A stretch of DNA of 20,497 nucleotides from a virus, in IMG/VR virus record IMGVR_UViG_3300024999_001601, positions 1 to 20,497 of that record; one strand, 5' to 3'. A program made the position numbers and the translations under genes. The notes under the pieces were generated by a model, which searched no databases, had not been told where the DNA came from, and saw only the letters and a list, made by a program, of their open reading frames with translations. Of this stretch, positions 1,313 to 20,497 are shown in pieces; position 1 is the first letter of the stretch, and the number at the start of each line of letters is the position of its first letter.

Positions 1313-2530
1313 TTATTTAAGTTCTACTAAATACTTGATTGTAATTTGATCTTCCTTATAGACAATAATCTCATCGTTTCTTAACATACTTCCTTCGTGG
1401 GCATGTAAACAATTTGCTCCTTTACATTCTCTTTGCAATTGTTCATAGTTGAAATTGTGATATTTATTATCAAAAGAATGAACGTCATAAGGTTTACCAT
1501 ATGCCACATCATACAAACTCATGAATGCTGAATTTGAATTTCCTCCAGCCCAATATGAACCATGTAAAGACGTATATCCAAGACTCTTTTGCGCTTTAGG
1601 GGCAAAATATATCCCATATCCAAACATCTTGCCTGTAACCACTGCTGATGGTCTTAGAACTAATCCTGTATTGATAATGCTCCACCAGTTCTCATTTCTG
1701 CTACCGTGCCATAATAATTTTGTGTTCTTTATTTTATTTTCCTTGATGTATGTATCATATTTTTCTTGAGTCTTAATGCTAGTAACTTTCCATGCCTGAT
1801 AGAATTTATCACTAATTGAACCAAGTGTTTTCTTTATTAGTTTCTTCTCTTCTTCTGTAATTTCTTCAAATTGTAAACCCATAACATCTAATATTGTTTG
1901 ATTGTTAATTGGCTCGTTTTCAGTAGTATCTTCATCCTCTTTAACTACAGATTGTTGAACTACTTGCCCCTTCATTACATCAAGTAAATCCTGTTCTTTC
2001 TGAATAATTTCACCAAAATCTTCTACTTTTGTTGCTAAATTATCCTTAACTTTTTTCATTTTTCGAGGAATAATCTTAAACAGTTCTACAAGAATTTTAT
2101 TAAATAATTCAATTGTATCAGAACTAATTAAGTTATTTAAAGTTAATTGTGCTTCATCAATCATTACTTGAGTAACTTTATTTGAAGAAATTGTATAGTT
2201 ATCTGCAATTGCTTGTCGAGCCATAGATTGCAGTCTTGATACAATAGATGCAATTACTTGATTTGGAATATCCAAGTATTCTTTGTTCTTCTTTTCTTTA
2301 ACGATTGTATCAGCAACTAATCTTGACTGATTTTCATATCCCTTTTTCAATTTGCTTTTCAAAGTAGAATCCCATTTACCCATAGGGTAAGAAGTTGTTT
2401 GGAAACCTGAATTTCCAATTCTACCGAATTGAACGTCAAATATCGAACCATTAGGTATCATTCGATAAAATTTATTGTTGTTTGCTCCTGCTTCTACTTT
2501 TACAAGATATAATGGATTTACTTCACTCAT
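1313..2530 (-). CDS. WGR-PARP: poly/mono(ADP-ribose) polymerase-like protein
   Basis: This protein transfers ADP-ribose from NAD+ to a target, probably at or near damaged DNA. Residue numbers count from the ATG at 2530, chosen because GGAGGTG lies just upstream; an in-frame ATG at 2545 has no site. Residues about 5-70 are a WGR-type domain (FYRM, FDVQFGRIG, KLKKGYENQS). Residues about 85-190 are helical, where eukaryotic PARPs have the regulatory domain. Residues about 235-405 are the PARP catalytic domain: LLWHGSR with H275, FGYGIYFAPKAQKS with Y308, and NDEIIVY with E387. This is the complete H-Y-E triad of PARP1-type enzymes. The start overlaps the macrodomain stop (TAATG), so the two are translationally coupled. 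Target and chain length cannot be read from sequence. PARPs are rare in bacteria and phages. Confidence 0.93.
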   Translation of the reverse strand: MSEVNPLYLVKVEAGANNNKFYRMIPNGSIFDVQFGRIGNSGFQTTSYPMGKWDSTLKSKLKKGYENQSRLVADTIVKEKKNKEYLDIPNQVIASIVSRLQSMARQAIADNYTISSNKVTQVMIDEAQLTLNNLISSDTIELFNKILVELFKIIPRKMKKVKDNLATKVEDFGEIIQKEQDLLDVMKGQVVQQSVVKEDEDTTENEPINNQTILDVMGLQFEEITEEEKKLIKKTLGSISDKFYQAWKVTSIKTQEKYDTYIKENKIKNTKLLWHGSRNENWWSIINTGLVLRPSAVVTGKMFGYGIYFAPKAQKSLGYTSLHGSYWAGGNSNSAFMSLYDVAYGKPYDVHSFDNKYHNFNYEQLQRECKGANCLHAHEGSMLRNDEIIVYKEDQITIKYLVELK

Positions 2531-2988
2531 TATTTCACCTCCCATCTATATAGCGTCACATCATAGTCACCAAAAACTTCTTCAATAATTTTATAAACAA
2601 AAGGCCATGATCCTCCAGCTAGACCGCATCCAATGTTGAATGGAATTGCGACAGATAAATTATGATCTTTTGCATTGATTTTTAATGTAAATAAAGCTTC
2701 TTCTAATGCCTTATAATCAGTTTGTTGTTTGTCTGTGCCATACTTATATTGACCAAATAAATTTGCTACATATTTATTTTCATCTACTTTTACAAAATGA
2801 CAATCTCCTAAAGCTTGAATTGGAAATTTAGTATTGGTGAGATATATTTGATAGTCTTTAAAAACTTTAGGATATTTGCTTTTAATTTGTTTGGCTATTC
2901 CTCCACCCATTACGCTCATGCAATTAACTTGGTGGGCTATGATATTTTCAGATGCTTGTAAAATATCTTCATCTACTATTTTAATCAA
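2530..2988 (-). CDS. Macrodomain protein (ADP-ribose binding or hydrolase)
   Basis: A stand-alone 152-aa macrodomain. The ligand-binding loops are clear: HQVNCMSVMGGGIAKQIK (residues 19-36) and IPFNIGCGLAGGSWP (115-129). The family binds ADP-ribose and often removes it from proteins or nucleic acid (TARG1/DarG-like) or hydrolyses ADP-ribose-1''-phosphate. The start is TTG at 2988 with GGAGGAAAA 8-9 bases upstream; no ATG fits. It sits between the DNA ligase (19 bp upstream) and the PARP (1-nt overlap), forming a writer/eraser pair. Hydrolase activity is inferred from family and context; it could be a binder only. Confidence 0.92.
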   Translation of the reverse strand: MIKIVDEDILQASENIIAHQVNCMSVMGGGIAKQIKSKYPKVFKDYQIYLTNTKFPIQALGDCHFVKVDENKYVANLFGQYKYGTDKQQTDYKALEEALFTLKINAKDHNLSVAIPFNIGCGLAGGSWPFVYKIIEEVFGDYDVTLYRWEVK

Positions 2989-9777: not shown

Positions 9778-10368
9778 TTAATTAAGTATTGTTACATATG
9801 CTTCTGTAACTCCAAATTTTATTGTCTCTTTGCTTGCTTTTTCTGAATGAAAGTCGCCCATGAAAAAATCAATTTTATTTCCAATAATTCCACTGCCAGT
9901 ATCTCTACAATAATAAATGCCATTATATTTCTTATAATTTTCATCAACAAATTCAAGTTTTATTTTACTACCCAATGGTATTAATCTTGGGTCAACAGAT
10001 ATTGCTCTAGCATCTCTCCATGTTAAACCTCTTAAATCTGTTCCATCTTTAGTGATTCCATACCCTGAATCACCTCTTGATTTACTAGTACATTTAATGG
10101 ATAAGTCATATGCAGTAATGGCAAAAAGCTTACTTTTCTTAGTTTCTTCAATTTTTTGTTCACTTGTTTTAATAGGTAGAACTATTCTACGATATTTACT
10201 AAATATCTCAGGAATAGGTTGTGAATTTACTAATTTACTTTCGTTTAATTTTGCGTCTTTGTTTTTATGTATAATCTTACTAATCCCTGCTTGACTAATA
10301 ATTAGCATCATCATGACCAACACACAAATGCCAAACCTCATATTATTTACTCGTTTAAATTTTCGCAT
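9778..10368 (-). CDS. 3D-domain cell-wall protein (YorM/YocH-like)
   Basis: A secreted or membrane-anchored protein with a C-terminal 3D (Asp-Asp-Asp) domain, the MltA-like barrel found in lytic transglycosylase-type enzymes that cut peptidoglycan. Residues 11-30 are a hydrophobic signal or anchor (MRFGICVLVMMMLIISQAGI). Residues 30-80 are a charged linker. The 3D domain spans 82-196: AITAYDL, SGYGITKDGTDLRGLTWRDA, VDPRLIPLGS (D126), and RDTGSGIIGNKIDFFM (D156, D167). SPbeta carries a 3D-domain protein, YorM. Role could be entry, release or spread through wall turnover. ATG at 10368 has AGGAAG upstream; ATG at 10341 is an alternative. Confidence 0.85.
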   Translation of the reverse strand: MRKFKRVNNMRFGICVLVMMMLIISQAGISKIIHKNKDAKLNESKLVNSQPIPEIFSKYRRIVLPIKTSEQKIEETKKSKLFAITAYDLSIKCTSKSRGDSGYGITKDGTDLRGLTWRDARAISVDPRLIPLGSKIKLEFVDENYKKYNGIYYCRDTGSGIIGNKIDFFMGDFHSEKASKETIKFGVTEAYVTILN

Positions 10369-10422: not shown

Positions 10423-10761
10423 TTATGCGATATGTAACATCCCCATTTCGTTAATCTGTACAGTAGTAAACGGATCTCTTGGCACAGGTGATTTATTTTC
10501 CTCGGTTGAGATTTTGAGTTTATTTATTTTCTCAACATGGAAATATATACTAATTTTATTTTTTGTTGCTATTTCTTGAAGTTTTTTCAGTGCCTCTCTA
10601 GCACTTGATTCGGTTGGATATGTATAGAAACCATTCGTTAACCATTTAGAATAAGAGTAGAAAAACTGCTTGGTTGGTTTGTCATATGAAATTGAATTAC
10701 TACCTACATAGTTGTTTCTTTCATCTTTTAGTACAAATCTTTCTCCGTCATTTAATTTCAT
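10423..10761 (-). CDS. SOS-controlled hypothetical protein, 112 aa
   Basis: The ATG at 10761 directly follows AAAAAGGAGAA, so I prefer it over the in-frame ATG at 10809, which has no good site and lies only about 20 bases from the predicted transcription start. The protein begins MKLNDGERFVLKDERNNYVG and contains a central helix (SSAREALKKLQEIATKNK) and a Pro-rich tail. No family recognised. It is the first gene after a promoter overlapping a LexA/DinR box and directly follows the lysogeny-control operon, so it is a candidate early induction gene or the head of an SOS-responsive operon. Confidence 0.65.
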   Translation of the reverse strand: MKLNDGERFVLKDERNNYVGSNSISYDKPTKQFFYSYSKWLTNGFYTYPTESSAREALKKLQEIATKNKISIYFHVEKINKLKISTEENKSPVPRDPFTTVQINEMGMLHIA

Positions 10762-10815
10762 GCTATTCTCCTTTTTAATTTTATAGTGAAACCAGAATGG
10801 AAACGCCATTGTTTC

Positions 10816-11002: not shown

Positions 11003-11026
11003 AAAGCCCCAATTAGTTTGGGGCTT
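11003..11026 (-). terminator. Terminator of the YopQ-MrpR operon
   Basis: AAAGCCCC and GGGGCTTT (11003-11010 and 11019-11026) form an 8-bp G+C-rich stem around the stop codon of the MrpR-like gene, whose last codons lie in the stem. The T-run is short on the minus strand (CTTTAAG) and better on the plus strand (CTTTATTCTTTTT), so it may work both ways. Confidence 0.7.
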
Positions 11027-11987
11027 TATTCTTTTTAAATGCTTCATACATCTCTTTTAATGAAAACCACCTCCTAGGATCAAGATTAACATTAAGGTAA
11101 ATTTGTCGAAAATCTTCATTTTGTAGCTCTCCTTTTTCCTTTTCCTTTTCTTCACATCTTTCTAACAGACCCGATTGGAACACCAACGTTGGATTTAAAA
11201 ATTTAATACCTGTGTACTCACGAAATTTTGTAAAACGTGTAACAATACATGAAGATGTAATTTTATCTCCATCAGAAAATTCTACATCTAAAGTTCGTAA
11301 AATATAAGGTGTTTGTTTTAAAGGTCTTATGGCAAATCTACCTTTTCCTTCACCATTTAGTTTGTGATACTCAGTTTCTTTTGTTGCAGCTACTAAGATA
11401 TCCATGGTTTTCTGACTTACCTTAATGTCTCTTTCTTCTCCGTTGTCTCTTGTGACTGTGATAACATTTATCTCAGGATTAATATCTGTATCCTTTAGAT
11501 TACGCAATTCTTCAAACGTATGATCAACAATACTTCTACCTCTAGCTCCTTCAAAAAGAAGTGCTACCATTGCCTTATCGACGTAATTATAAAGCCTATC
11601 GATCACCTCGGTAAAAAGTCTATCCCTAGCAAAATAAGAATGCTTCTGAGCAACTTGATGAACAAACTTTTTCAAATCCTCTTTTGTCAATAGTTTGAAA
11701 GCATTGATACCTGTCTTACTGTATTCTTCAGCTAAACACCAGTCAACATATTTTGTGATAATTGTTTGAGCGACATCTAATGATTTTGGTGTTTTTTTCT
11801 TTAATCCAATCATTAAATCAACAACATCTGAATAACTAAAGTCGCACAAATCTTTTTGTTTTTCTACTTCAAATTTGCTTGTAGAGACCAACAAAGAGGT
11901 ATAGGTTGATCGAGTTGATTCATTTGGATACTCTTCGTTCAAAAACCTATTCTTTTGATCTGGATTAAAAAGTTTTAAATTGAACAT
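11013..11987 (-). CDS. yopR: YopR/MrpR-like master lysogeny repressor (recombinase fold)
   Basis: A tyrosine-recombinase-like protein of 324 aa; SPbeta YopR (MrpR), the master repressor of lysogeny, is about 325 aa and also lies right after YopQ. Residues 1-110 look like the helical core-binding domain (STRSTYTSLLVSTSKF, AQTIITKYVDWCLAEEY). Residues 120-324 look like the catalytic domain, with R149 in LLFEGARGRS where active enzymes have a G-x-R motif. The later HxxR box and tyrosine are not recognisable, which fits a DNA-binding repressor rather than an active integrase. ATG overlaps the YopQ stop (TAATG) with GGAAGGTG upstream. Alternative: an active or decayed integrase. The assignment rests on length, order and pattern from memory. 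Confidence 0.7.
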   Translation of the reverse strand: MFNLKLFNPDQKNRFLNEEYPNESTRSTYTSLLVSTSKFEVEKQKDLCDFSYSDVVDLMIGLKKKTPKSLDVAQTIITKYVDWCLAEEYSKTGINAFKLLTKEDLKKFVHQVAQKHSYFARDRLFTEVIDRLYNYVDKAMVALLFEGARGRSIVDHTFEELRNLKDTDINPEINVITVTRDNGEERDIKVSQKTMDILVAATKETEYHKLNGEGKGRFAIRPLKQTPYILRTLDVEFSDGDKITSSCIVTRFTKFREYTGIKFLNPTLVFQSGLLERCEEKEKEKGELQNEDFRQIYLNVNLDPRRWFSLKEMYEAFKKNKAPN

Positions 11988-13339
11988 TATGCAACACCTT
12001 CCTGAACTAAACCTCTAAAATAATCTGCGATCTTTTTAATAGTTGATAAATTAAGGTTGTTCTCAATGCCAATCTTTTTCCAGATAGGATTAGATTTTTG
12101 GAAGTCTAATTTGTTTAAAATTGTTTTTAACTCTCTTTTCCATTCATTACCGTACTTTTGCCTTAATTCTTCGCCAAGTACAACATATCCAATAGACATA
12201 TTGTTGTCTGCAAGATAGGATGATTTTTTTGTTTCAGACAGTTCATCATTAAATTTTTCGTAGTTTATTCCGATAACAACATTAAATAAATCAACAATAA
12301 ACTCCTCTACCTCTTCCACCTGAATAAATGATTTATCTTTTAAATCATAAACATATTCAATCGTTTTCGAAAGCGTATCAAATGTGTATAGTTTAAAATT
12401 ATCTTTTCTTATTTCTGCGTTGTCTAATCCAAAACGATTAAATAGCTCATTCTTTCTTTGCTTGATATTCACGCTCTTAACTATTTCCATGTTTTTATTG
12501 GATTCATCAAACTGGTCTACCCAATGTTCATCTAAAGGTTCTGCTTTTGCTTCTTGAAAAATTACTTGCCTAGCCTTAGATTCATCAACAAAATAAATCA
12601 TAATTAAAGTAGTCATGTCAATATTTGGTTTTTCTTCTACTGCCTTGAGGATTGCACCTGTTCTGTTAGCTCCATCAATAACATCGACATTTATATTATT
12701 TACATCTATGGTTAGTGTTCTATCCTTTGCATTGTATTTAAATTTTTCTCTTTCAGATCCATCTACTCTTCGAATATTCCATATTATTGTGTTTGGGTTA
12801 AAAGTACCACTAATCATTTCTTGCTTTATAGCATTGACTTTTGAGGGTTTGATGTTTGGACTGTAGGTTATTTTATCTCCATATTTCCGAACTGTTGGTT
12901 GTCTCTGCGTATTTTTATTATACGTAATTAAACCATTTTGCATATAAAGTGCAACATTTTGATATGTTTCTTTTGTACATATCCATTGATAATTGTTTAT
13001 TTGATCAACATTGTGCAAAACTATCATAGTTGTTTTTTCATCATCAATGAATTTATAAATCTCCGCTGCCTGAATTTCATTTTCATTAAACCAATCTTCT
13101 AATTTTATCTTATATTTCTTTGTAGTAATATAGAGGTATTTAACAACAAGGCATAATTCAATATTAGAAAAATAGTTAATAGGTGTTGATTGAGTAAAAA
13201 TACCCACAATTCTACCTCTTGAAAAATTATGCTTTTCTACTAAAGAATCTACAACTGCATCAATCACCTTGTTGTCATTACTGTAATCTTCAAGAATTGA
13301 ATTAAGTTCCTTTTCAAGTAGTTGTCTATCTTTTTTCAT
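11987..13339 (-). CDS. yopQ: YopQ-like lysogeny-operon protein (DGQHR-like)
   Basis: The start is ATG 13339, immediately behind AAAGGAGGAAATAATA; ATG 13360 lies upstream of that site and has none of its own. It is 450 aa, near the about 460 aa of SPbeta YopQ, which also immediately precedes YopR. The middle holds IDGANRTGAILKAVEEK (about residues 221-237), reminiscent of the DGQHR motif of DndB/ParB-like proteins, with regions rich in charged residues around it. The C-terminus is helical (KIADYFRGLVQEGVA). Its promoter, operator-like palindrome and leader hairpin lie just upstream, and it is coupled to the repressor. Molecular function is unknown; a role in repression or induction is inferred from context. 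Confidence 0.7.
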   Translation of the reverse strand: MKKDRQLLEKELNSILEDYSNDNKVIDAVVDSLVEKHNFSRGRIVGIFTQSTPINYFSNIELCLVVKYLYITTKKYKIKLEDWFNENEIQAAEIYKFIDDEKTTMIVLHNVDQINNYQWICTKETYQNVALYMQNGLITYNKNTQRQPTVRKYGDKITYSPNIKPSKVNAIKQEMISGTFNPNTIIWNIRRVDGSEREKFKYNAKDRTLTIDVNNINVDVIDGANRTGAILKAVEEKPNIDMTTLIMIYFVDESKARQVIFQEAKAEPLDEHWVDQFDESNKNMEIVKSVNIKQRKNELFNRFGLDNAEIRKDNFKLYTFDTLSKTIEYVYDLKDKSFIQVEEVEEFIVDLFNVVIGINYEKFNDELSETKKSSYLADNNMSIGYVVLGEELRQKYGNEWKRELKTILNKLDFQKSNPIWKKIGIENNLNLSTIKKIADYFRGLVQEGVA

Positions 13340-13362
13340 TATTATTTCCTCCTTTGACATTA

Positions 13363-13387: not shown

Positions 13388-13399
13388 ATCATCAATGAT
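13388..13399. promoter_or_regulatory. Palindromic operator candidate at the YopQ promoter
   Basis: ATCATCAATGAT is an inverted repeat (ATCAT/ATGAT around 2 bases) overlapping the end of the -10 and the predicted transcription start of the YopQ-MrpR operon. It is suitably placed for a repressor such as the MrpR-like or HTH protein. Short, so chance is possible. Confidence 0.4.
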
Positions 13400-13427
13400 T
13401 ATATGATATTTATACCCAATGTGTCAA
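13398..13427 (-). promoter_or_regulatory. Consensus promoter of the YopQ-MrpR operon
   Basis: On the minus strand TTGACA (13427-13422) and TATAAT (13403-13398), both perfect, are 18 bp apart. This would be a strong constitutive promoter unless repressed, as expected for a lysogeny-maintenance operon. Confidence 0.8.
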
Positions 13428-13513: not shown

Positions 13514-14296
13514 TTAAGCAAATACAGCAACCCTTTGTGGTTGACGATTATAACTAACCTGACGATTATTTTCAACTCTTTGACTATGTTCGGTTAATTT
13601 GGTTAAAAATCTGTCTACTATAGACTCGTCTAATCTTGTATCAACGATACCAGTTTGCTTCATAATAGCCACTTCAACTTTTTTAAGCACATCTTCTGGA
13701 CACTCACATAAAACTTGAACAAAACCATCAACCATTAATCTTCTTTTAGATACGACTCGCATTTGCTCAACCAAAATTTCAGATTCGTAAGCTAAACCAC
13801 ATTCCTGTCCAATTCTTACGTGAGTTGGTTGATAGTTTTTTCCTAGTCTACTGGATAGTGGAGCAACCATTGTGATCCCTGCATGTAAATTTCCCATGTT
13901 GTTTTGTAGTACTAGCGAAGGGCGTATACCTCCTTGTTCTGAGTCTAAAATGTTTCCATAATCACAAAGAACTATCCAACCTCTCATAACCCTTATACTT
14001 CTTAAATCAACTCCACTATTATTTAAATTATATCCACACGCAATCCTTAAATCGTCAAAAGATACACGAAATTCAGATCCCATAGCAATTTTCTTAAGTA
14101 AACCCACATCTGGATATGAAGTGATCTTACCATTAATTATATTGGCAATTATTTTGACCGAATTTGGAATACCACAGTTGTTAGCGAATTCGGGGATTGA
14201 ATTGTAACCTACAGCTTTTCTAACTAAAATAGCAAGTTTTTTGAAATCCTTTTCCTCGTTTGATTTAACCGTTTCTTTTCTTTTTACATTGAACAT
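13514..14296 (-). CDS. XRE-type HTH fused to PemK/MazF-family domain
   Basis: A 260-aa two-domain protein. Residues about 18-90 match an XRE/HTH module (LRK-like VRKAVGYNSIPEFANNCGIP, ANIINGK, LLKKIA, FDDLRIACGYN). Residues about 103-215 match the PemK/MazF RNase fold: RGWIVLCDYGNILDSEQGGI with R125, LVLQNNMGN, MVAPLSSRLGKNYQPTHVRI and ILVEQMRVVSKRRL. MazF toxins cut RNA at short sites; the catalytic Thr is Ser here (S148/S149), so activity may be kept or reduced. No MazE gene is next to it, and the HTH may serve as built-in antitoxin or operator-binding part. It has its own promoter, follows agrD and precedes the lysogeny operon. It is a candidate regulator linking signalling and lysogeny. 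The C-terminal tail (about 225-260) is basic. Confidence 0.82.
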   Translation of the reverse strand: MFNVKRKETVKSNEEKDFKKLAILVRKAVGYNSIPEFANNCGIPNSVKIIANIINGKITSYPDVGLLKKIAMGSEFRVSFDDLRIACGYNLNNSGVDLRSIRVMRGWIVLCDYGNILDSEQGGIRPSLVLQNNMGNLHAGITMVAPLSSRLGKNYQPTHVRIGQECGLAYESEILVEQMRVVSKRRLMVDGFVQVLCECPEDVLKKVEVAIMKQTGIVDTRLDESIVDRFLTKLTEHSQRVENNRQVSYNRQPQRVAVFA

Positions 14297-14360: not shown

Positions 14361-14389
14361 ATATTACAGGATTTGTATTAATATGTCAA
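14361..14389 (-). promoter_or_regulatory. Promoter of the HTH-MazF fusion gene
   Basis: On the minus strand TTGACA (14389-14384) and TAATAT (14366-14361) are 17 bp apart, with the predicted start about 57 bases before the ATG. It lies between the agrD terminator and the gene. TATTAATA in the spacer is a perfect palindrome and may be part of an operator. Confidence 0.75.
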
Positions 14390-14467: not shown

Positions 14468-14587
14468 CTATGCGATGCACTTAGGAGTTTCTGGTTGATG
14501 CCATGCTGCGAAACAAGACATAGTTGCTGCATAAATAGCAATAGAAGCGATAAGTAGTAAACCTCCAGCAAATATTTTGTTCTTCAT
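14468..14587 (-). CDS. agrD: AgrD-type cyclic lactone autoinducer peptide precursor
   Basis: A 39-aa peptide that would be cut and cyclised by AgrB into a secreted signal. ATG at 14587 follows GGAGGTGA; stop TAG is at 14468. The layout is that of AgrD: an amphipathic/hydrophobic leader (MKNKIFAGGLLLIASIAIYA), a core ATMSCFAAW, and a tail HQPETPKCIA with the Pro-containing motif found after the AgrB cleavage site (HQP-x-x-P in clostridia, DEPxVP in staphylococci). I predict a five-residue thiolactone, CFAAW, with a few residues of N-terminal tail. The recognition tail is short and carries an extra Cys. It lies at the end of the agrB cassette rather than directly after agrB. Confidence 0.9.
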   Translation of the reverse strand: MKNKIFAGGLLLIASIAIYAATMSCFAAWHQPETPKCIA

Positions 14588-14618
14588 TTTTTTCACCTCC
14601 TTACATTATGATTATTTG

Positions 14619-15428
14619 TTAAACAGACATATTATCTTCATGAGAAGATATATTATAAGTCTGTTTTACACTGTTTGTAAGAAAAATACAATGATTTATA
14701 ATTAGATATAAACCTATTATTACAATAGAAGGTATTAAATAAGTAAAACTTATAACAACAATTATCTGACCTGCCAGTGAATTTAATATATTTAATAAAT
14801 TATTATAAAGAACTAATTTAAGTATACATATTTCGAATATTAATAATAATGTCATAGTGGTGATAACAAATCTTTTGAAAAAGATATTTTTATAAATATA
14901 TTCCAATATATCAATTTGAAATTTTCTTTGCTTATAGGTAAGTATGAATACTATTATTGAGAATTCAATAATTTTAGATGCAAGTGAACATAATAAAAGT
15001 AATCGCATATTATTATAAATTTCTTGAAAATTAACATGAAAGAAGAAAAATAAAACTGGTGCAGTTAATAGATCAATTGCGATTAAACTTATGTATAAGG
15101 GTATAAATTTTATAATAATTTTTATTTTTAAATATTTTGTCTCTTCTAATTTTGTCTTTTCAAAAACATATGTTGATAAAACACATAGTAAAATTAAACT
15201 AATTATAGATGCAATATTCCTTTGTATATTAAAACCATAAATAGCTATACTTATCAATAAAGATGGTGGTATTATTAGAATTGAATACCATTTAATATTT
15301 TCTCTTAATCGATAAACATCCAATAATTCTTTTCTACCCATAAATTTTATTAAAAGTACTGTCATAAAAATCATTTCTGGGACAGCTAAGAAAAAGAAAC
15401 ATATAATAATATTGAATAGGTTTTCCAT
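14619..15428 (-). CDS. AgrC-like membrane sensor lacking a kinase domain
   Basis: A 269-aa integral membrane protein with roughly six to seven hydrophobic segments and no soluble domain. The N-terminus FFFLAVPEMIFMTVLLIKFM has the hydrophobic-PE pattern seen at the start of AgrC/Spo0B-type sensor kinases in clostridia. Such kinases continue for another 150-200 residues with a GHKL ATPase; here the gene stops after the membrane part and is followed 31 bp later by agrD. It has its own promoter and an AGGAGGA site before ATG 15428. It could bind the peptide without phosphotransfer, act as immunity or decoy, or be a truncated sensor. The family call is tentative. Confidence 0.5.
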   Translation of the reverse strand: MENLFNIIICFFFLAVPEMIFMTVLLIKFMGRKELLDVYRLRENIKWYSILIIPPSLLISIAIYGFNIQRNIASIISLILLCVLSTYVFEKTKLEETKYLKIKIIIKFIPLYISLIAIDLLTAPVLFFFFHVNFQEIYNNMRLLLLCSLASKIIEFSIIVFILTYKQRKFQIDILEYIYKNIFFKRFVITTMTLLLIFEICILKLVLYNNLLNILNSLAGQIIVVISFTYLIPSIVIIGLYLIINHCIFLTNSVKQTYNISSHEDNMSV

Positions 15429-15457
15429 ATTTAATCCTCCTTAATATTTATATATTA

Positions 15458-15486
15458 AGAATAGCATATATTAACTGTTTTGTCAA
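15458..15486 (-). promoter_or_regulatory. Internal promoter for the sensor and agrD
   Basis: On the minus strand TTGACA (15486-15481) and TATTCT (15463-15458) are 17 bp apart, with the start about 23 bases before the sensor ATG. It allows sensor and AgrD expression separately from the AgrB transcript. Confidence 0.7.
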
Positions 15487-15502
15487 AATAATTATTTATT
15501 AA

Positions 15503-16123
15503 CTATTTATATTCATTAATTTGCTTGATTGTATAGTATAAAATTATTACTGCAAATAATTTTATTAGTATGTCGCCGAGGCTCATTATCACATAAAAAA
15601 TATCCCATGTGTCAGTTAAGAATATTAATTTTGCTGTGTGATCACCCCATATATGAAAGTCTTTAAACACTTCCGCTTTTTCAAACATATCAATTTTTGA
15701 GTATCCAGTACTAAGACTATTGCTCGGAAACACAGGCATTTTACCATTATTATAAAACATAGCAATTTGATTTAATTTTGATCCAAGAGTAGCAAATAAT
15801 GTGCCTATTATAACTGGTGAAGTTAATGATGTAATTAATTGCCCATTATTTTGTATATTAATATTTTTAAATATTGAAATGTTAATTAATTTATATTTAA
15901 TAATAAGTATTATATAAAATAAAAATGTAATGTTTTTTATATGATTGCTATATTGTAGAAACCAATACTCACTTTGGATCATCAAATATATAATATATAC
16001 GTTCAAGACACAGGCTAATATGATAGGATACATACTCCAATGTTTAAAGATATTAAGAATTTCAGACCATTTATATCCCTTAAATTTTGCAAACAAACAG
16101 CTGAAAAATACTACTTCTATCAT
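15503..16123 (-). CDS. DUF5317-like membrane protein of agr loci
   Basis: A 206-aa membrane protein with about five hydrophobic segments. It shows the pattern of DUF5317 proteins: MIEVVFFSCLFAKFKGYK at the N-terminus, NNGKMPVFPS in the middle (residues about 124-133), then HTAKLIFLTDTWDIF and SLGDILIKLFAVIILYY near the end. DUF5317 genes often accompany agrB/agrD in clostridia; their role is unknown. The start overlaps the agrB stop (ATGA) with GGAGGA inside agrB, so it is translationally coupled to AgrB. Confidence 0.65.
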   Translation of the reverse strand: MIEVVFFSCLFAKFKGYKWSEILNIFKHWSMYPIILACVLNVYIIYLMIQSEYWFLQYSNHIKNITFLFYIILIIKYKLINISIFKNINIQNNGQLITSLTSPVIIGTLFATLGSKLNQIAMFYNNGKMPVFPSNSLSTGYSKIDMFEKAEVFKDFHIWGDHTAKLIFLTDTWDIFYVIMSLGDILIKLFAVIILYYTIKQINEYK

Positions 16124-16815
16124 ATATGTCCTCCATCAATAAATTTAAAAAATTTAATACCTATAGGTGTAATTGTAAATACTTCAAGTAATATTCCAAA
16201 AATAACACTTATACTAATCATTTGATGTGATTTGAATAACATAACACTCACAACGTTACAAAAGACAATAAATAAAATAGAAGTTTTTTTCTTGATATTG
16301 CCACTGTCGCAATCTTTATCAGATTTATCTTGTCGTTCTTGGGGAGCGTATTTTGCAGCTATGTATACACTCCATATTAATCCTACAGTAAAACAAATAC
16401 CTGCAATTAAATTGGTCATAGGTATCAATGTGGCTGTATATCCTAAAGACAAAAATGAAAAAATCATTGTGGCGAAACATTTATTGAAGGTGCTCATATG
16501 AACCCCACCTGCAAATCCCCTTAGTATAGAAAACGTATTCATAATAAAAAATGTTGGCAGTAAAATATCCATAAAATACGCAATAGATAAAACAATTAGG
16601 TATTTAAACAATTCGCTATAAAATATCGTTACTCCGTTTTCGCATAATTGTTTAACTAATTCTTCGTTAATTTTTACTTCTTTGTTTTTTGGACGATATT
16701 TTTTAATTAAATTTTCTATGTAAGTATACTCTACTTGAGTAAATGTTTTATTTATTAAATCGTGTTTGTTTATAAGATTTACTGTACCTTTTGATAATGA
16801 CTTTATTATATCCAT
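16120..16815 (-). CDS. agrB: AgrB: peptide-processing membrane endopeptidase
   Basis: AgrB cleaves the AgrD tail and helps form the thiolactone and export the signal. The family motif is complete: ILRGFAGGVHMSTFNKCF with H106 and C113, the catalytic His and Cys at the canonical seven-residue spacing, and YAPQERQDK after the next membrane segments. It is 231 aa with four to six membrane helices; the N-terminal 60 residues are cytoplasmic and charged, and the last ones end in FFKFIDGGHI. ATG at 16815 follows AAAGGGAG that lies inside the end of the homing-endonuclease gene, which overlaps it by 10 bp. No response regulator (AgrA) follows in this window. Confidence 0.95.
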   Translation of the reverse strand: MDIIKSLSKGTVNLINKHDLINKTFTQVEYTYIENLIKKYRPKNKEVKINEELVKQLCENGVTIFYSELFKYLIVLSIAYFMDILLPTFFIMNTFSILRGFAGGVHMSTFNKCFATMIFSFLSLGYTATLIPMTNLIAGICFTVGLIWSVYIAAKYAPQERQDKSDKDCDSGNIKKKTSILFIVFCNVVSVMLFKSHQMISISVIFGILLEVFTITPIGIKFFKFIDGGHI

Positions 16816-18879: not shown

Positions 18880-20497
18880 TTATTTTAAAACTCTTGCCCT
18901 AATTTCAGATAAACTTTCGTCCCTTACTAGTTTCCCATCAATAAATACATCTTCAAGTAAATCGTACACTTTTAATTGTTCTCTTTGTTCTTTAGTTAAA
19001 CAATCTGTGACTCTTAATTTTCCAAATCCTTCAACTACTACAACCATGCCTTTTTGAGATTTCTTAATTCCACTATCAGTTTTTGGATTTTTAAAGATAA
19101 ATTTCTCCTTTCCATCAATTACCGTATAGGTTGCTTTTAATGCGAAAGAAAAAGTATCTCTTGTATAATATCCTAATGAATATGAACCTACTCCAAATAC
19201 AACATTTTCACTAGAGAATCCTTTATATTCAAGAAGATCAAATATTTCTTCTGCTCGTTCAGGAGTTATTGCATCGCCATATATCAAACCAATATGACTA
19301 TCTAATACTTTATATCCCTTACTATTAATAGCCCCTCCAAAGGTATCCCATAGAGCTTCTACAGACCCTTTTTGTTCTAATGATAATTCAATTTCTTTAT
19401 ATTTAACTCTCACCTTATCAACTACAAAATATTTATTATCTGAATAACCTCCTCGTTCTGAAGTTATGTCAGCATTACAATTTACTTCATATAACTTCCC
19501 ATCAATCCTGCAATAATACGTTGCTTCATCAATATAACCATCTGAGTCACAGTTATCACTAAAATAGTCTCTAGACACTTCTCTATACCAATCTTTAATA
19601 GTTTCCAAGGTTAAATCTTCATCTTCTTCAATATCCATTACATTACCACAAATAATCTTAACAGGATCACCACTATCAGGTCTCACAACTAATTTTCCAT
19701 CTCTAGACATAATAGTATCTTTTAATGTTGGAAGAATATTATCAATAACATTCCAATAATCATAGCCATCACTCACAATACTTACAATACCACTTTGGGC
19801 AACTTCCTCAATCATTCTCTTATAATATCTCAAATCATCTTGATATTGACATTGAATAGAATGTTCTGTAGCTAAAACACTAGCTGCCACAAGTTCATTT
19901 TCAACATTAGCATTATAATATTGCTCTAAGTATTGAATGCTTGGAATAGTGTCTGTACCTGTAAAATATAACAAATGACCTGCCCCTGTTGTAACTGCAT
20001 CCTCATGTCCAGACATACCTCTGTAGCTAAAATTATGACATTGCCATTGAATATGAGCGTGGCTATCTGCGGTAACATCGGCCCATTTTTCACAAATATC
20101 TCTATACTGTTTTGCAATAGTTGTTGCTGTAATTACTTTCCACATGCAAGCAGAGATAAAAGTTTCAAGGAAATTAGTTAACCAATAGAAGTCTTTGTGA
20201 GTATTTTCAATCGTGAATACTGGTACTCGCATAGGAATGATGGTTCCCTCTTTAACTGCCTTGATCTGAATTGGTAGATATCCTAAATCATGTAACGCTT
20301 CAATATGATTTGTGATTGCACAATTTTCTCCTAGAGTATATGTAATAATCCTCTTATAATCTGCAATTACTGTTTCTTTGGGTAAATTAAAGAAGTTTTC
20401 ATTAAAATAATCAATTAAATACTCTTTTATAAATCCCTGTAAACCGAAGAAAACTACTGAATCAATCCCTTCAATTCTTGAATGTCGTGGGGTAAAA
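18880..20497 (-). CDS. nadV: Nicotinamide phosphoribosyltransferase (partial, N-terminus outside)
   Basis: Makes NMN from nicotinamide and PRPP, the first step of NAD+ salvage. The frame is open to the right edge (first complete codon at 20496), so the true start is outside; the in-frame ATG at 20232 is internal. Visible N-terminal sequence TPRHSRIEGIDSVVFFGLQG is typical of NAMPT/NadV. Further signatures are PVFTIENTHKDFYWLTNFLE, YNANVENELVAASVLATEHS, SDGYDYWNV, VVRPDSGDPVKIICG, IYGDAITPERAEEI and FGVGSYSLGYYTRDTFSFAL. Compared with short bacterial NadV it has an acidic insertion of roughly 90 residues after VRPDSGDP. Phage NadV, sometimes with an NMN adenylyltransferase, rebuilds NAD+ against NAD-depleting defences; the partner is not in this window. 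Confidence 0.95.
   Translation of the reverse strand, partial: FTPRHSRIEGIDSVVFFGLQGFIKEYLIDYFNENFFNLPKETVIADYKRIITYTLGENCAITNHIEALHDLGYLPIQIKAVKEGTIIPMRVPVFTIENTHKDFYWLTNFLETFISACMWKVITATTIAKQYRDICEKWADVTADSHAHIQWQCHNFSYRGMSGHEDAVTTGAGHLLYFTGTDTIPSIQYLEQYYNANVENELVAASVLATEHSIQCQYQDDLRYYKRMIEEVAQSGIVSIVSDGYDYWNVIDNILPTLKDTIMSRDGKLVVRPDSGDPVKIICGNVMDIEEDEDLTLETIKDWYREVSRDYFSDNCDSDGYIDEATYYCRIDGKLYEVNCNADITSERGGYSDNKYFVVDKVRVKYKEIELSLEQKGSVEALWDTFGGAINSKGYKVLDSHIGLIYGDAITPERAEEIFDLLEYKGFSSENVVFGVGSYSLGYYTRDTFSFALKATYTVIDGKEKFIFKNPKTDSGIKKSQKGMVVVVEGFGKLRVTDCLTKEQREQLKVYDLLEDVFIDGKLVRDESLSEIRARVLK

What the first reader, a model, noticed from the sequence alone, without database searches (positions are those of the whole stretch)
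14468..16815. Complete agr-type peptide signalling cassette in a phage-like lysogeny region
AgrB (H106/C113) and a clear 39-aa AgrD with predicted ring CFAAW lie with a DUF5317-like and an AgrC-like membrane protein immediately upstream of HTH-MazF, YopQ-like and MrpR/YopR-like genes. In SPbeta the arbitrium genes aimR/aimP lie a few genes from yopQ-yopR. Here an agr cassette occupies that kind of position. I infer that this phage family uses a cyclic thiolactone peptide, not arbitrium, to sense phage or host density and set lysogeny. Agr genes are known on some C. difficile phages, but linkage to an MrpR-type repressor would be new to my knowledge.
Basis: partly seen in the sequence, partly recalled or inferred. 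Interest (0 to 1): 0.92.

Follow-up and report, generated by a model that had tools for sequence, protein, structure and literature searches.

The report
Phage agr peptide-signalling lysogeny cassette
A family of large temperate phages related to clostridial prophages carries a bacterial-style cyclic-peptide signalling cassette next to its master-repressor genes, where the Bacillus relative SPbeta has its arbitrium peptide genes, so these phages may use a different chemical language to choose between killing the cell and lying dormant.

Summary
On the minus strand (16815-11013) the window encodes AgrB, DUF5317, a 269-aa membrane protein (MP269), a 39-aa AgrD (ring CFAAW, then HQPETP), a HTH-like/MazF protein, YopQ and MrpR. 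This is not an accident of one contig: six further phages (five IMG/VR contigs, one Clostridiaceae prophage; MrpR 27-63% identical to the window's) carry all seven genes together. Trees show that AgrB/DUF5317/MP269/HTH-MazF are inherited together and exchanged between phages independently of YopQ-MrpR (AU p 1e-5 or less); AgrD follows the same pairing. The predicted ring differs in each phage; in five of seven it starts at Ser, not Cys. No AimR, AgrC-type kinase or AgrA (LytTR) was found in the phage records searched, so this is not a complete agr system. It resembles the Clostridium perfringens-type operon. Best explanation: a phage-encoded peptide communication system that biases lysogeny through HTH-MazF and YopQ-MrpR, with MP269 the candidate receptor. 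Linkage, co-inheritance and selection are shown; sensing and control of lysogeny are inferred. Agr genes on phages were known; linkage to an MrpR module and the HTH-MazF partner were not found in the papers searched.

The parts
16120..16815 (-). AgrB, peptide-processing membrane protease (H106, C113)
   Evidence: PF04647 101 bits; catalytic residues invariant in 11 sequences; present in all seven phages
15503..16123 (-). DUF5317 membrane protein, overlapping the end of agrB
   Evidence: PF17248 48.5 bits; 34-37% identical to the DUF5317 gene of C. perfringens-like agr operons
15458..15486 (-). Promoter-like site TTGACA-17-TATTCT before MP269-agrD
   Evidence: consensus scan; the scan as a whole found no more sites than shuffles
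14619..15428 (-). MP269, kinase-less multi-helix membrane protein, candidate peptide receptor
   Evidence: no Pfam, NCBIfam hit; N-terminal ~170 aa align with the small membrane protein of C. perfringens-like agr operons; all-helical model pLDDT 72.6
14468..14587 (-). AgrD signal precursor, 39 aa, predicted ring CFAAW followed by HQPETP
   Evidence: TIGR04223 27.2 bits, cut-off 19; homologue at the same place in six other phages; pN/pS 0.22 against L157
14421..14452 (-). Hairpin directly after agrD
   Evidence: fold of about -18.6 kcal/mol; a comparable hairpin follows agrD in all seven phages; weak U-tract, not called a terminator
14361..14389 (-). Promoter-like site TTGACA-17-TAATAT before HTH-MazF
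13514..14296 (-). HTH-like domain fused to MazF/PemK domain, candidate output protein
   Evidence: PF02452 74 bits; MazF fold by Foldseek, E 1e-11; follows the cassette tree, not the repressor tree
13398..13427 (-). Perfect consensus promoter TTGACA-18-TATAAT before yopQ-mrpR
   Evidence: 12 of 12 matches
11987..13360 (-). YopQ-like (DndB family) protein
   Evidence: PF14072, phrog_5732; alignment with SPbeta YopQ
11013..11987 (-). MrpR/YopR-type master repressor
   Evidence: PF22822 and PF22823 above cut-off; relatives in 38 phage records
18369..18764 (-). Stand-alone MazF upstream of the cassette; also present upstream in L154-L158; membership of the system uncertain
   Evidence: PF02452 82 bits

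Best explanation
A phage-encoded, kinase-less agr-type peptide communication module built into an SPbeta-type lysogeny region. AgrB cuts and cyclises AgrD into a five-residue (thio)lactone that leaves the cell. As infected cells or lysogens accumulate, the peptide is sensed at the membrane, most likely by MP269. The signal acts on the cytoplasmic HTH-MazF protein, which by DNA binding and/or MazF RNase activity shifts the balance towards the YopQ-MrpR repressor and lysogeny. The cassette takes the place that arbitrium aimR-aimP holds in SPbeta. Shown: the genes, conserved linkage, co-inheritance and exchange as a unit, peptide diversity, purifying selection, absence of AimR, AgrC-type kinase and AgrA from the records searched. 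Inferred: peptide maturation, MP269 as receptor, HTH-MazF as output, and the direction of the effect.
For: Seven phages carry DUF5317-MP269-AgrD-HTH-MazF plus AgrB beside YopQ-MrpR, including one whose MrpR is only 26-29% identical to the rest. HTH-MazF shares the history of the membrane genes and not of YopQ-MrpR. Rings differ between alleles, as expected of signal specificity groups. pN/pS 0.21-0.49. No AimR, no HATPase_c_5 or LytTR. Precedents: MrpR is the SPbeta master repressor and binds the aimR promoter (PMC10516654); arbitrium acts through MazF, whose activity favours lysogeny (PMC10769878). MP269-AgrD sits beside an XRE regulator in two bacterial loci. MazF genes also lie beside YopQ-MrpR in three clostridial prophages without agr.
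Against: No functional data. HTH domain rests on a model only. One of seven HTH-MazF proteins lacks the MazF Arg. MP269 has no known structural relative. Only 1 of 11 clostridial MrpR loci found without the window's agr as bait has the cassette. No shared operator found. Viral records may be incomplete.
Confidence: 0.58

Rival explanations
1. The cassette talks to the host, not to the phage: the peptide is sensed by a host two-component kinase (such as a VirS- or AgrC-type protein) and changes host behaviour in the phage's favour; its place beside the repressor only secures expression in lysogens.
For: The gene set resembles the C. perfringens-type operon, whose peptide is thought to be read by the separately encoded VirS kinase (PMC7492741, abstract). 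No kinase or response regulator in the phage records.
Against: It does not explain why HTH-MazF co-inherits with the cassette, nor why the cassette stays beside YopQ-MrpR. No AgrD with the ring CFAAW among the 94 genome stretches matching Cx4HQPExPK, though that set is small.
Confidence: 0.22
2. The cassette is cargo: a fitness, toxin-antitoxin-like or superinfection-exclusion module carried in a permissive spot beside the repressor, with no influence on the lysis-lysogeny decision.
For: Stand-alone MazF and endonuclease-like genes nearby vary between phages; the cassette moves between phages independently of the repressor.
Against: All exchanges end at the same place, immediately upstream of YopQ-MrpR, in seven diverged phages. 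In SPbeta-type genomes this is the decision region. No match to defence models except the DndB-like domain of YopQ.
Confidence: 0.14
3. AgrD-AgrB make a cyclic peptide that acts on competitors (antimicrobial or quorum-quenching), with DUF5317/MP269 as self-protection.
For: Hypervariable peptide and two dedicated membrane proteins. Staphylococcal AIPs inhibit other agr groups (own knowledge).
Against: Ordinary AgrD layout. The DUF5317 and small membrane genes belong to a signalling operon in C. perfringens, where agrBD alone did not complement an agrB mutant but the four-gene operon did (PMC2706048).
Confidence: 0.05

Closest known systems
Arbitrium (AimR-AimP-AimX) of SPbeta and phi3T
   Same: Peptide-signal genes a few genes upstream of yopQ-yopR(mrpR); MazF in the circuit (PMC10769878)
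   Different: Cyclic AgrD-type precursor with AgrB instead of a linear AimP; no AimR in the records searched; membrane proteins in the cassette; MazF encoded by the phage
C. perfringens-type agr operon (CPE1563-CPE1562-agrB-agrD)
   Same: DUF5317, small membrane protein, AgrB and AgrD with C-x4-HQPE; no AgrC/AgrA in the operon
   Different: Gene order changed, MP269 is ~115 aa longer, HTH-MazF added, located in a phage; matched by gene content in C. perfringens-like genomes, not by the CPE sequences themselves
agr genes of C. difficile phage phiCDHM1
   Same: Phage-borne agrB and agrD without agrA (PMC3901668)
   Different: phiCDHM1 has an AgrC-like kinase, lies in another phage family and near the endolysin gene; no MrpR or HTH-MazF reported
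agr cassettes of Brevibacillus phages Abouo and Davies
   Same: AgrB, AgrD-like peptide and kinase-less membrane proteins; placed between integrase and XRE regulators
   Different: Membrane proteins unrelated to MP269 or DUF5317 by profile comparison; no MrpR, no HTH-MazF; smaller phages of another kind

Membership tests
agr quorum-sensing system (agrBDCA) | AgrB with catalytic His and Cys | tested here: met
   PF04647 101 bits; H106, C113 invariant
agr quorum-sensing system (agrBDCA) | AgrD precursor with Cys/Ser ring and PxxP motif | tested here: met
   TIGR04223 above cut-off in window, L155, L156, L157; below it in L154, L158, L144, which rest on synteny and alignment
agr quorum-sensing system (agrBDCA) | AgrC receptor histidine kinase | tested here: not met
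   no HATPase_c_5 in window or L154-L158 records; MP269 has no kinase domain
agr quorum-sensing system (agrBDCA) | AgrA response regulator with LytTR domain | tested here: not met
   no LytTR in window or L154-L158 records; records may be fragments
agr quorum-sensing system (agrBDCA) | Secreted cyclic peptide | not testable with these tools
   needs mass spectrometry
C. perfringens-type agr operon | DUF5317 gene with agrBD | tested here: met
C. perfringens-type agr operon | Small membrane protein (153 aa) homologue | tested here: met
   profile alignment over 144 columns, E 4e-6, probability 87%; a two-sequence profile had missed it
Arbitrium | AimR receptor | tested here: not met
   NF038310: none in L154-L158 records or in the genome with L144; control in B. 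subtilis positive
Arbitrium | AimP-like linear pre-peptide | not tested
   no aimR found beside which to look for it
SPbeta-type lysogeny module | MrpR repressor, both domains | tested here: met
   PF22822, PF22823
SPbeta-type lysogeny module | YopQ directly before mrpR | tested here: met
SPbeta-type lysogeny module | YopP integrase-like gene directly before yopQ | tested here: not met
   no YopP-like hit beside YopQ in window, L144 or L154
Phage communication system controlling lysogeny | Peptide changes lysogeny frequency | not testable with these tools
   needs an experiment

The most novel reading that the evidence does not exclude
A second class of phage-to-phage communication: a cyclic AgrD peptide read by a kinase-less membrane receptor (MP269) that acts directly on an HTH-MazF regulator to control the SPbeta-type YopQ-MrpR switch, with signal alleles exchanged as cassettes and Cys/Ser (thiolactone/lactone) variants. 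It would stand in for arbitrium in this phage lineage and define a kinase-free agr route, also present in bacterial chromosomes as AgrB-MP269-AgrD beside an XRE regulator.
Probability: 0.42. Interest if true: 0.94.

Novelty: new variant of a known kind. Interest (0 to 1): 0.86.

Why it matters
It would show that phages with the same repressor core have recruited unrelated peptide-signalling systems (arbitrium and agr) for the same decision, and it would give a kinase-free agr pathway with a named candidate receptor and effector. It also provides seven natural peptide alleles with which signal specificity, cross-talk and phage density sensing can be tested.

Tried and rejected
Single-protein searches with AgrB, MrpR and HTH-MazF in viral and genome contigs found nothing; relatives came only through profiles. 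An identical-ring pattern search in viral contigs gave two chance hits that are not AgrD. AgrB by tblastn in phage and plasmid records: no match, weak evidence of absence since known phage agr genes were missed too. MP269 model against the PDB: nothing; MP269 profile against PDB sequences: only chance-level eukaryotic channels. HTH part against PDB sequences: nothing significant. De novo search for a shared operator in the 167-kb relative found only ribosome-binding-site-like words. Direct repeats in the window: nothing of note. The hairpin after agrD was considered a terminator, but it lacks a good U-tract and was not called one. Two-sequence comparison of MP269 with the C. perfringens-type protein was negative and became convincing only with 14 sequences. 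A review's remark that SPbeta-like phages carry agr homologues (PMC11945551) rests partly on a reference that, as listed, concerns cinnamaldehyde and a LytTR domain; not followed further. The phiCDHM1 record was not held.

Full report
What is there. The window is a whole IMG/VR record of 20,497 b. On its minus strand, in transcription order, lie a nicotinamide phosphoribosyltransferase (open at the contig end), a stand-alone MazF, an endonuclease-like gene, AgrB, DUF5317, a 269-aa membrane protein (MP269), AgrD, HTH-MazF, YopQ, MrpR, a small gene and a 3D-domain protein. AgrB, DUF5317, AgrD, MazF and both MrpR domains pass curated cut-offs. The 'AgrC-like' label is not: MP269 has no kinase domain.

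Is the linkage real? I aligned MrpR and YopQ with those of SPbeta, Perkons, Geobacillus E3 and Mammaliicoccus phages and searched 207 Clostridiaceae genomes with the MrpR profile. Eleven strong MrpR loci appeared. One of them, L144, carries DUF5317, MP269, an AgrD, HTH-MazF, AgrB, YopQ and MrpR within 6.3 kb on one strand. A YopQ profile then found a 94-kb IMG/VR phage with the same set (L154), and a MrpR pair alignment found four more (L155-L158, contigs of 39-167 kb). All seven share DUF5317-MP269-AgrD-HTH-MazF in this order. AgrB lies before DUF5317 in the window and L157, and between HTH-MazF and YopQ in the others. The sample is biased towards relatives of the window, because its proteins were the bait. 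The strongest case is L144, whose MrpR is only 26-29% identical to the others and which was found by MrpR alone.

A unit that is exchanged. Pairwise identities and maximum-likelihood trees disagree between cassette and repressor. For DUF5317+MP269+AgrB the pairs are window-L157, L154-L158 and L155-L156 (bootstrap 99-100). HTH-MazF gives the same pairs (94, 99 and 78). YopQ+MrpR give window-L155 and L156-L157-L158. Each cassette pair is rejected for YopQ+MrpR (AU p 1e-5 to 3e-7), and the repressor groups are rejected for the cassette and for HTH-MazF (p below 1e-50). The groups were chosen after seeing the identity matrix, so the p values are not strictly a priori, but they are extreme. HTH-MazF therefore belongs to the signalling cassette and not to the repressor pair. 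AgrD is too short for a tree, but its identities pair in the same way. L156 and L157 carry a second MP269 before YopQ, and L158 a 98-aa piece of one, perhaps leftovers of earlier cassettes. The cassette genes show pN/pS of 0.21-0.49 in the three pairs.

The peptide. Aligned on the [HYN][QE]P motif, the predicted ring is CFAAW (window), CLAAW (L157), SWFFA (L155), SWLFS (L156), SAMWS (L154), SAFWT (L158) and SHLLF (L144). Five of seven have Ser where two have Cys. Lactone AIPs with Ser are known from some staphylococci (own knowledge). L144 and L154 also have a Cys three residues before the Ser, so a larger thiolactone cannot be excluded there. Among 94 genome stretches matching Cx4HQPExPK no AgrD has the ring CFAAW.

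Where it comes from. DUF5317 with a 153-aa membrane protein, AgrB and AgrD form the operon of C. perfringens-like genomes (L073, L089), which matches CPE1563-CPE1562-agrB-agrD in gene content. There the four genes are co-transcribed, and agrBD alone did not complement an agrB mutant while the whole operon did (PMC2706048). I matched by gene content and not by the CPE sequences themselves. MP269 residues 10-171 align with the 153-aa protein over 144 columns (E 4e-6, probability 87%). MP269 relatives also occur in bacterial genomes: AgrB-MP269-AgrD near a divergent XRE regulator (L169) and MP269-AgrD beside an XRE regulator (L167). I saw no kinase gene among the listed neighbours but ran no kinase profile on those loci.

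What is absent. No AimR in the L154-L158 records or in the whole genome with L144; no HATPase_c_5 and no LytTR domain in the window or in the L154-L158 records. Viral records may be fragments. Among the MrpR loci looked at, AimR occurs in SPbeta and in B. velezensis plaBV1, agr in the seven, and neither in the rest.

The phages. The 167-kb relative and the contig of L144 both encode a serine-type integrase, portal, tape-measure and terminase-like proteins and share PHROG families. The portal protein of the 167-kb relative has relatives in large Enterocloster and Mammaliicoccus phages and in Alicyclobacillus KKP_3916; the last two groups also carry MrpR.

How it probably works. In SPbeta MrpR binds the aimR promoter (PMC10516654), and in phi3T arbitrium sets lysogeny through MazE-MazF, MazF activity favouring lysogeny (PMC10769878). 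Here the peptide gene is followed in all seven phages by a strong hairpin, and a sigma-A-like promoter precedes HTH-MazF; a perfect consensus promoter stands before yopQ-mrpR. I propose: AgrB makes the cyclic peptide; MP269 senses it at the membrane; HTH-MazF carries the signal to phage or host RNA or DNA; YopQ-MrpR holds lysogeny. Only gene content, linkage, co-inheritance and selection are shown. Receptor, output and direction are inference. The HTH reading rests on a model with pLDDT 80-90 in that part without a significant sequence match; the MazF half is certain. One of seven HTH-MazF proteins (L157) has His in place of the MazF Arg, so RNase activity may not be general.

Novelty. Agr genes on phages are known: phiCDHM1 with an AgrC-like kinase, and Abouo, Davies and Emery with kinase-less membrane proteins (PMC3901668). 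In Abouo and Davies I find the cassette between the integrase and XRE regulators, with unrelated membrane proteins. Searches of the paper library found no report of agr linked to MrpR and none mentioning DUF5317; most subscription papers are not in that library. I file this as a new variant of a known kind: it works like a phage peptide-communication system, but it fails membership of agrBDCA (no AgrC, no AgrA) and of arbitrium (no AimR).

Noticed in passing
L146:1232-2311, L147:8910-10052, L148:13630-14884: Clostridial MrpR prophages without agr have a MazF gene followed at once by a 164-213 aa protein with weak TPR matches, beside YopQ-MrpR. A MazF-TPR pair may alternate with agr-HTH-MazF; the TPR protein could be a peptide receptor or an antitoxin.
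   Followed up: partly
L188:26243-29822; L189:26243-30561: Brevibacillus phages Abouo and Davies carry agrB, an AgrD-like gene and kinase-less membrane proteins between integrase and XRE regulators, a separate case of agr in a phage lysogeny region.
   Followed up: partly
L169:2702-4983; L167:6230-8124: Bacterial loci with AgrB-MP269-AgrD (L169) or MP269-AgrD (L167) beside an XRE regulator, possibly a kinase-free agr type in chromosomes.
   Followed up: partly
L156:7570-8421, L157:7526-8425, L158:8153-8449: Second MP269 copies, one of them a fragment, between the cassette and YopQ: possible orphan receptors or remnants of replaced cassettes.
   Followed up: partly
window 1313-2988 and 18880-20496: NAD/ADP-ribose genes in one phage contig: PARP with WGR domain, a DarG-like macro-domain protein and a nicotinamide phosphoribosyltransferase.
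   Followed up: no
window 9778-10368 and 10423-10809: A 3D-domain protein and a small gene follow MrpR; a 3D gene follows MrpR in L154, L156 and L157 as well and lies upstream of the cassette in L144.
   Followed up: no
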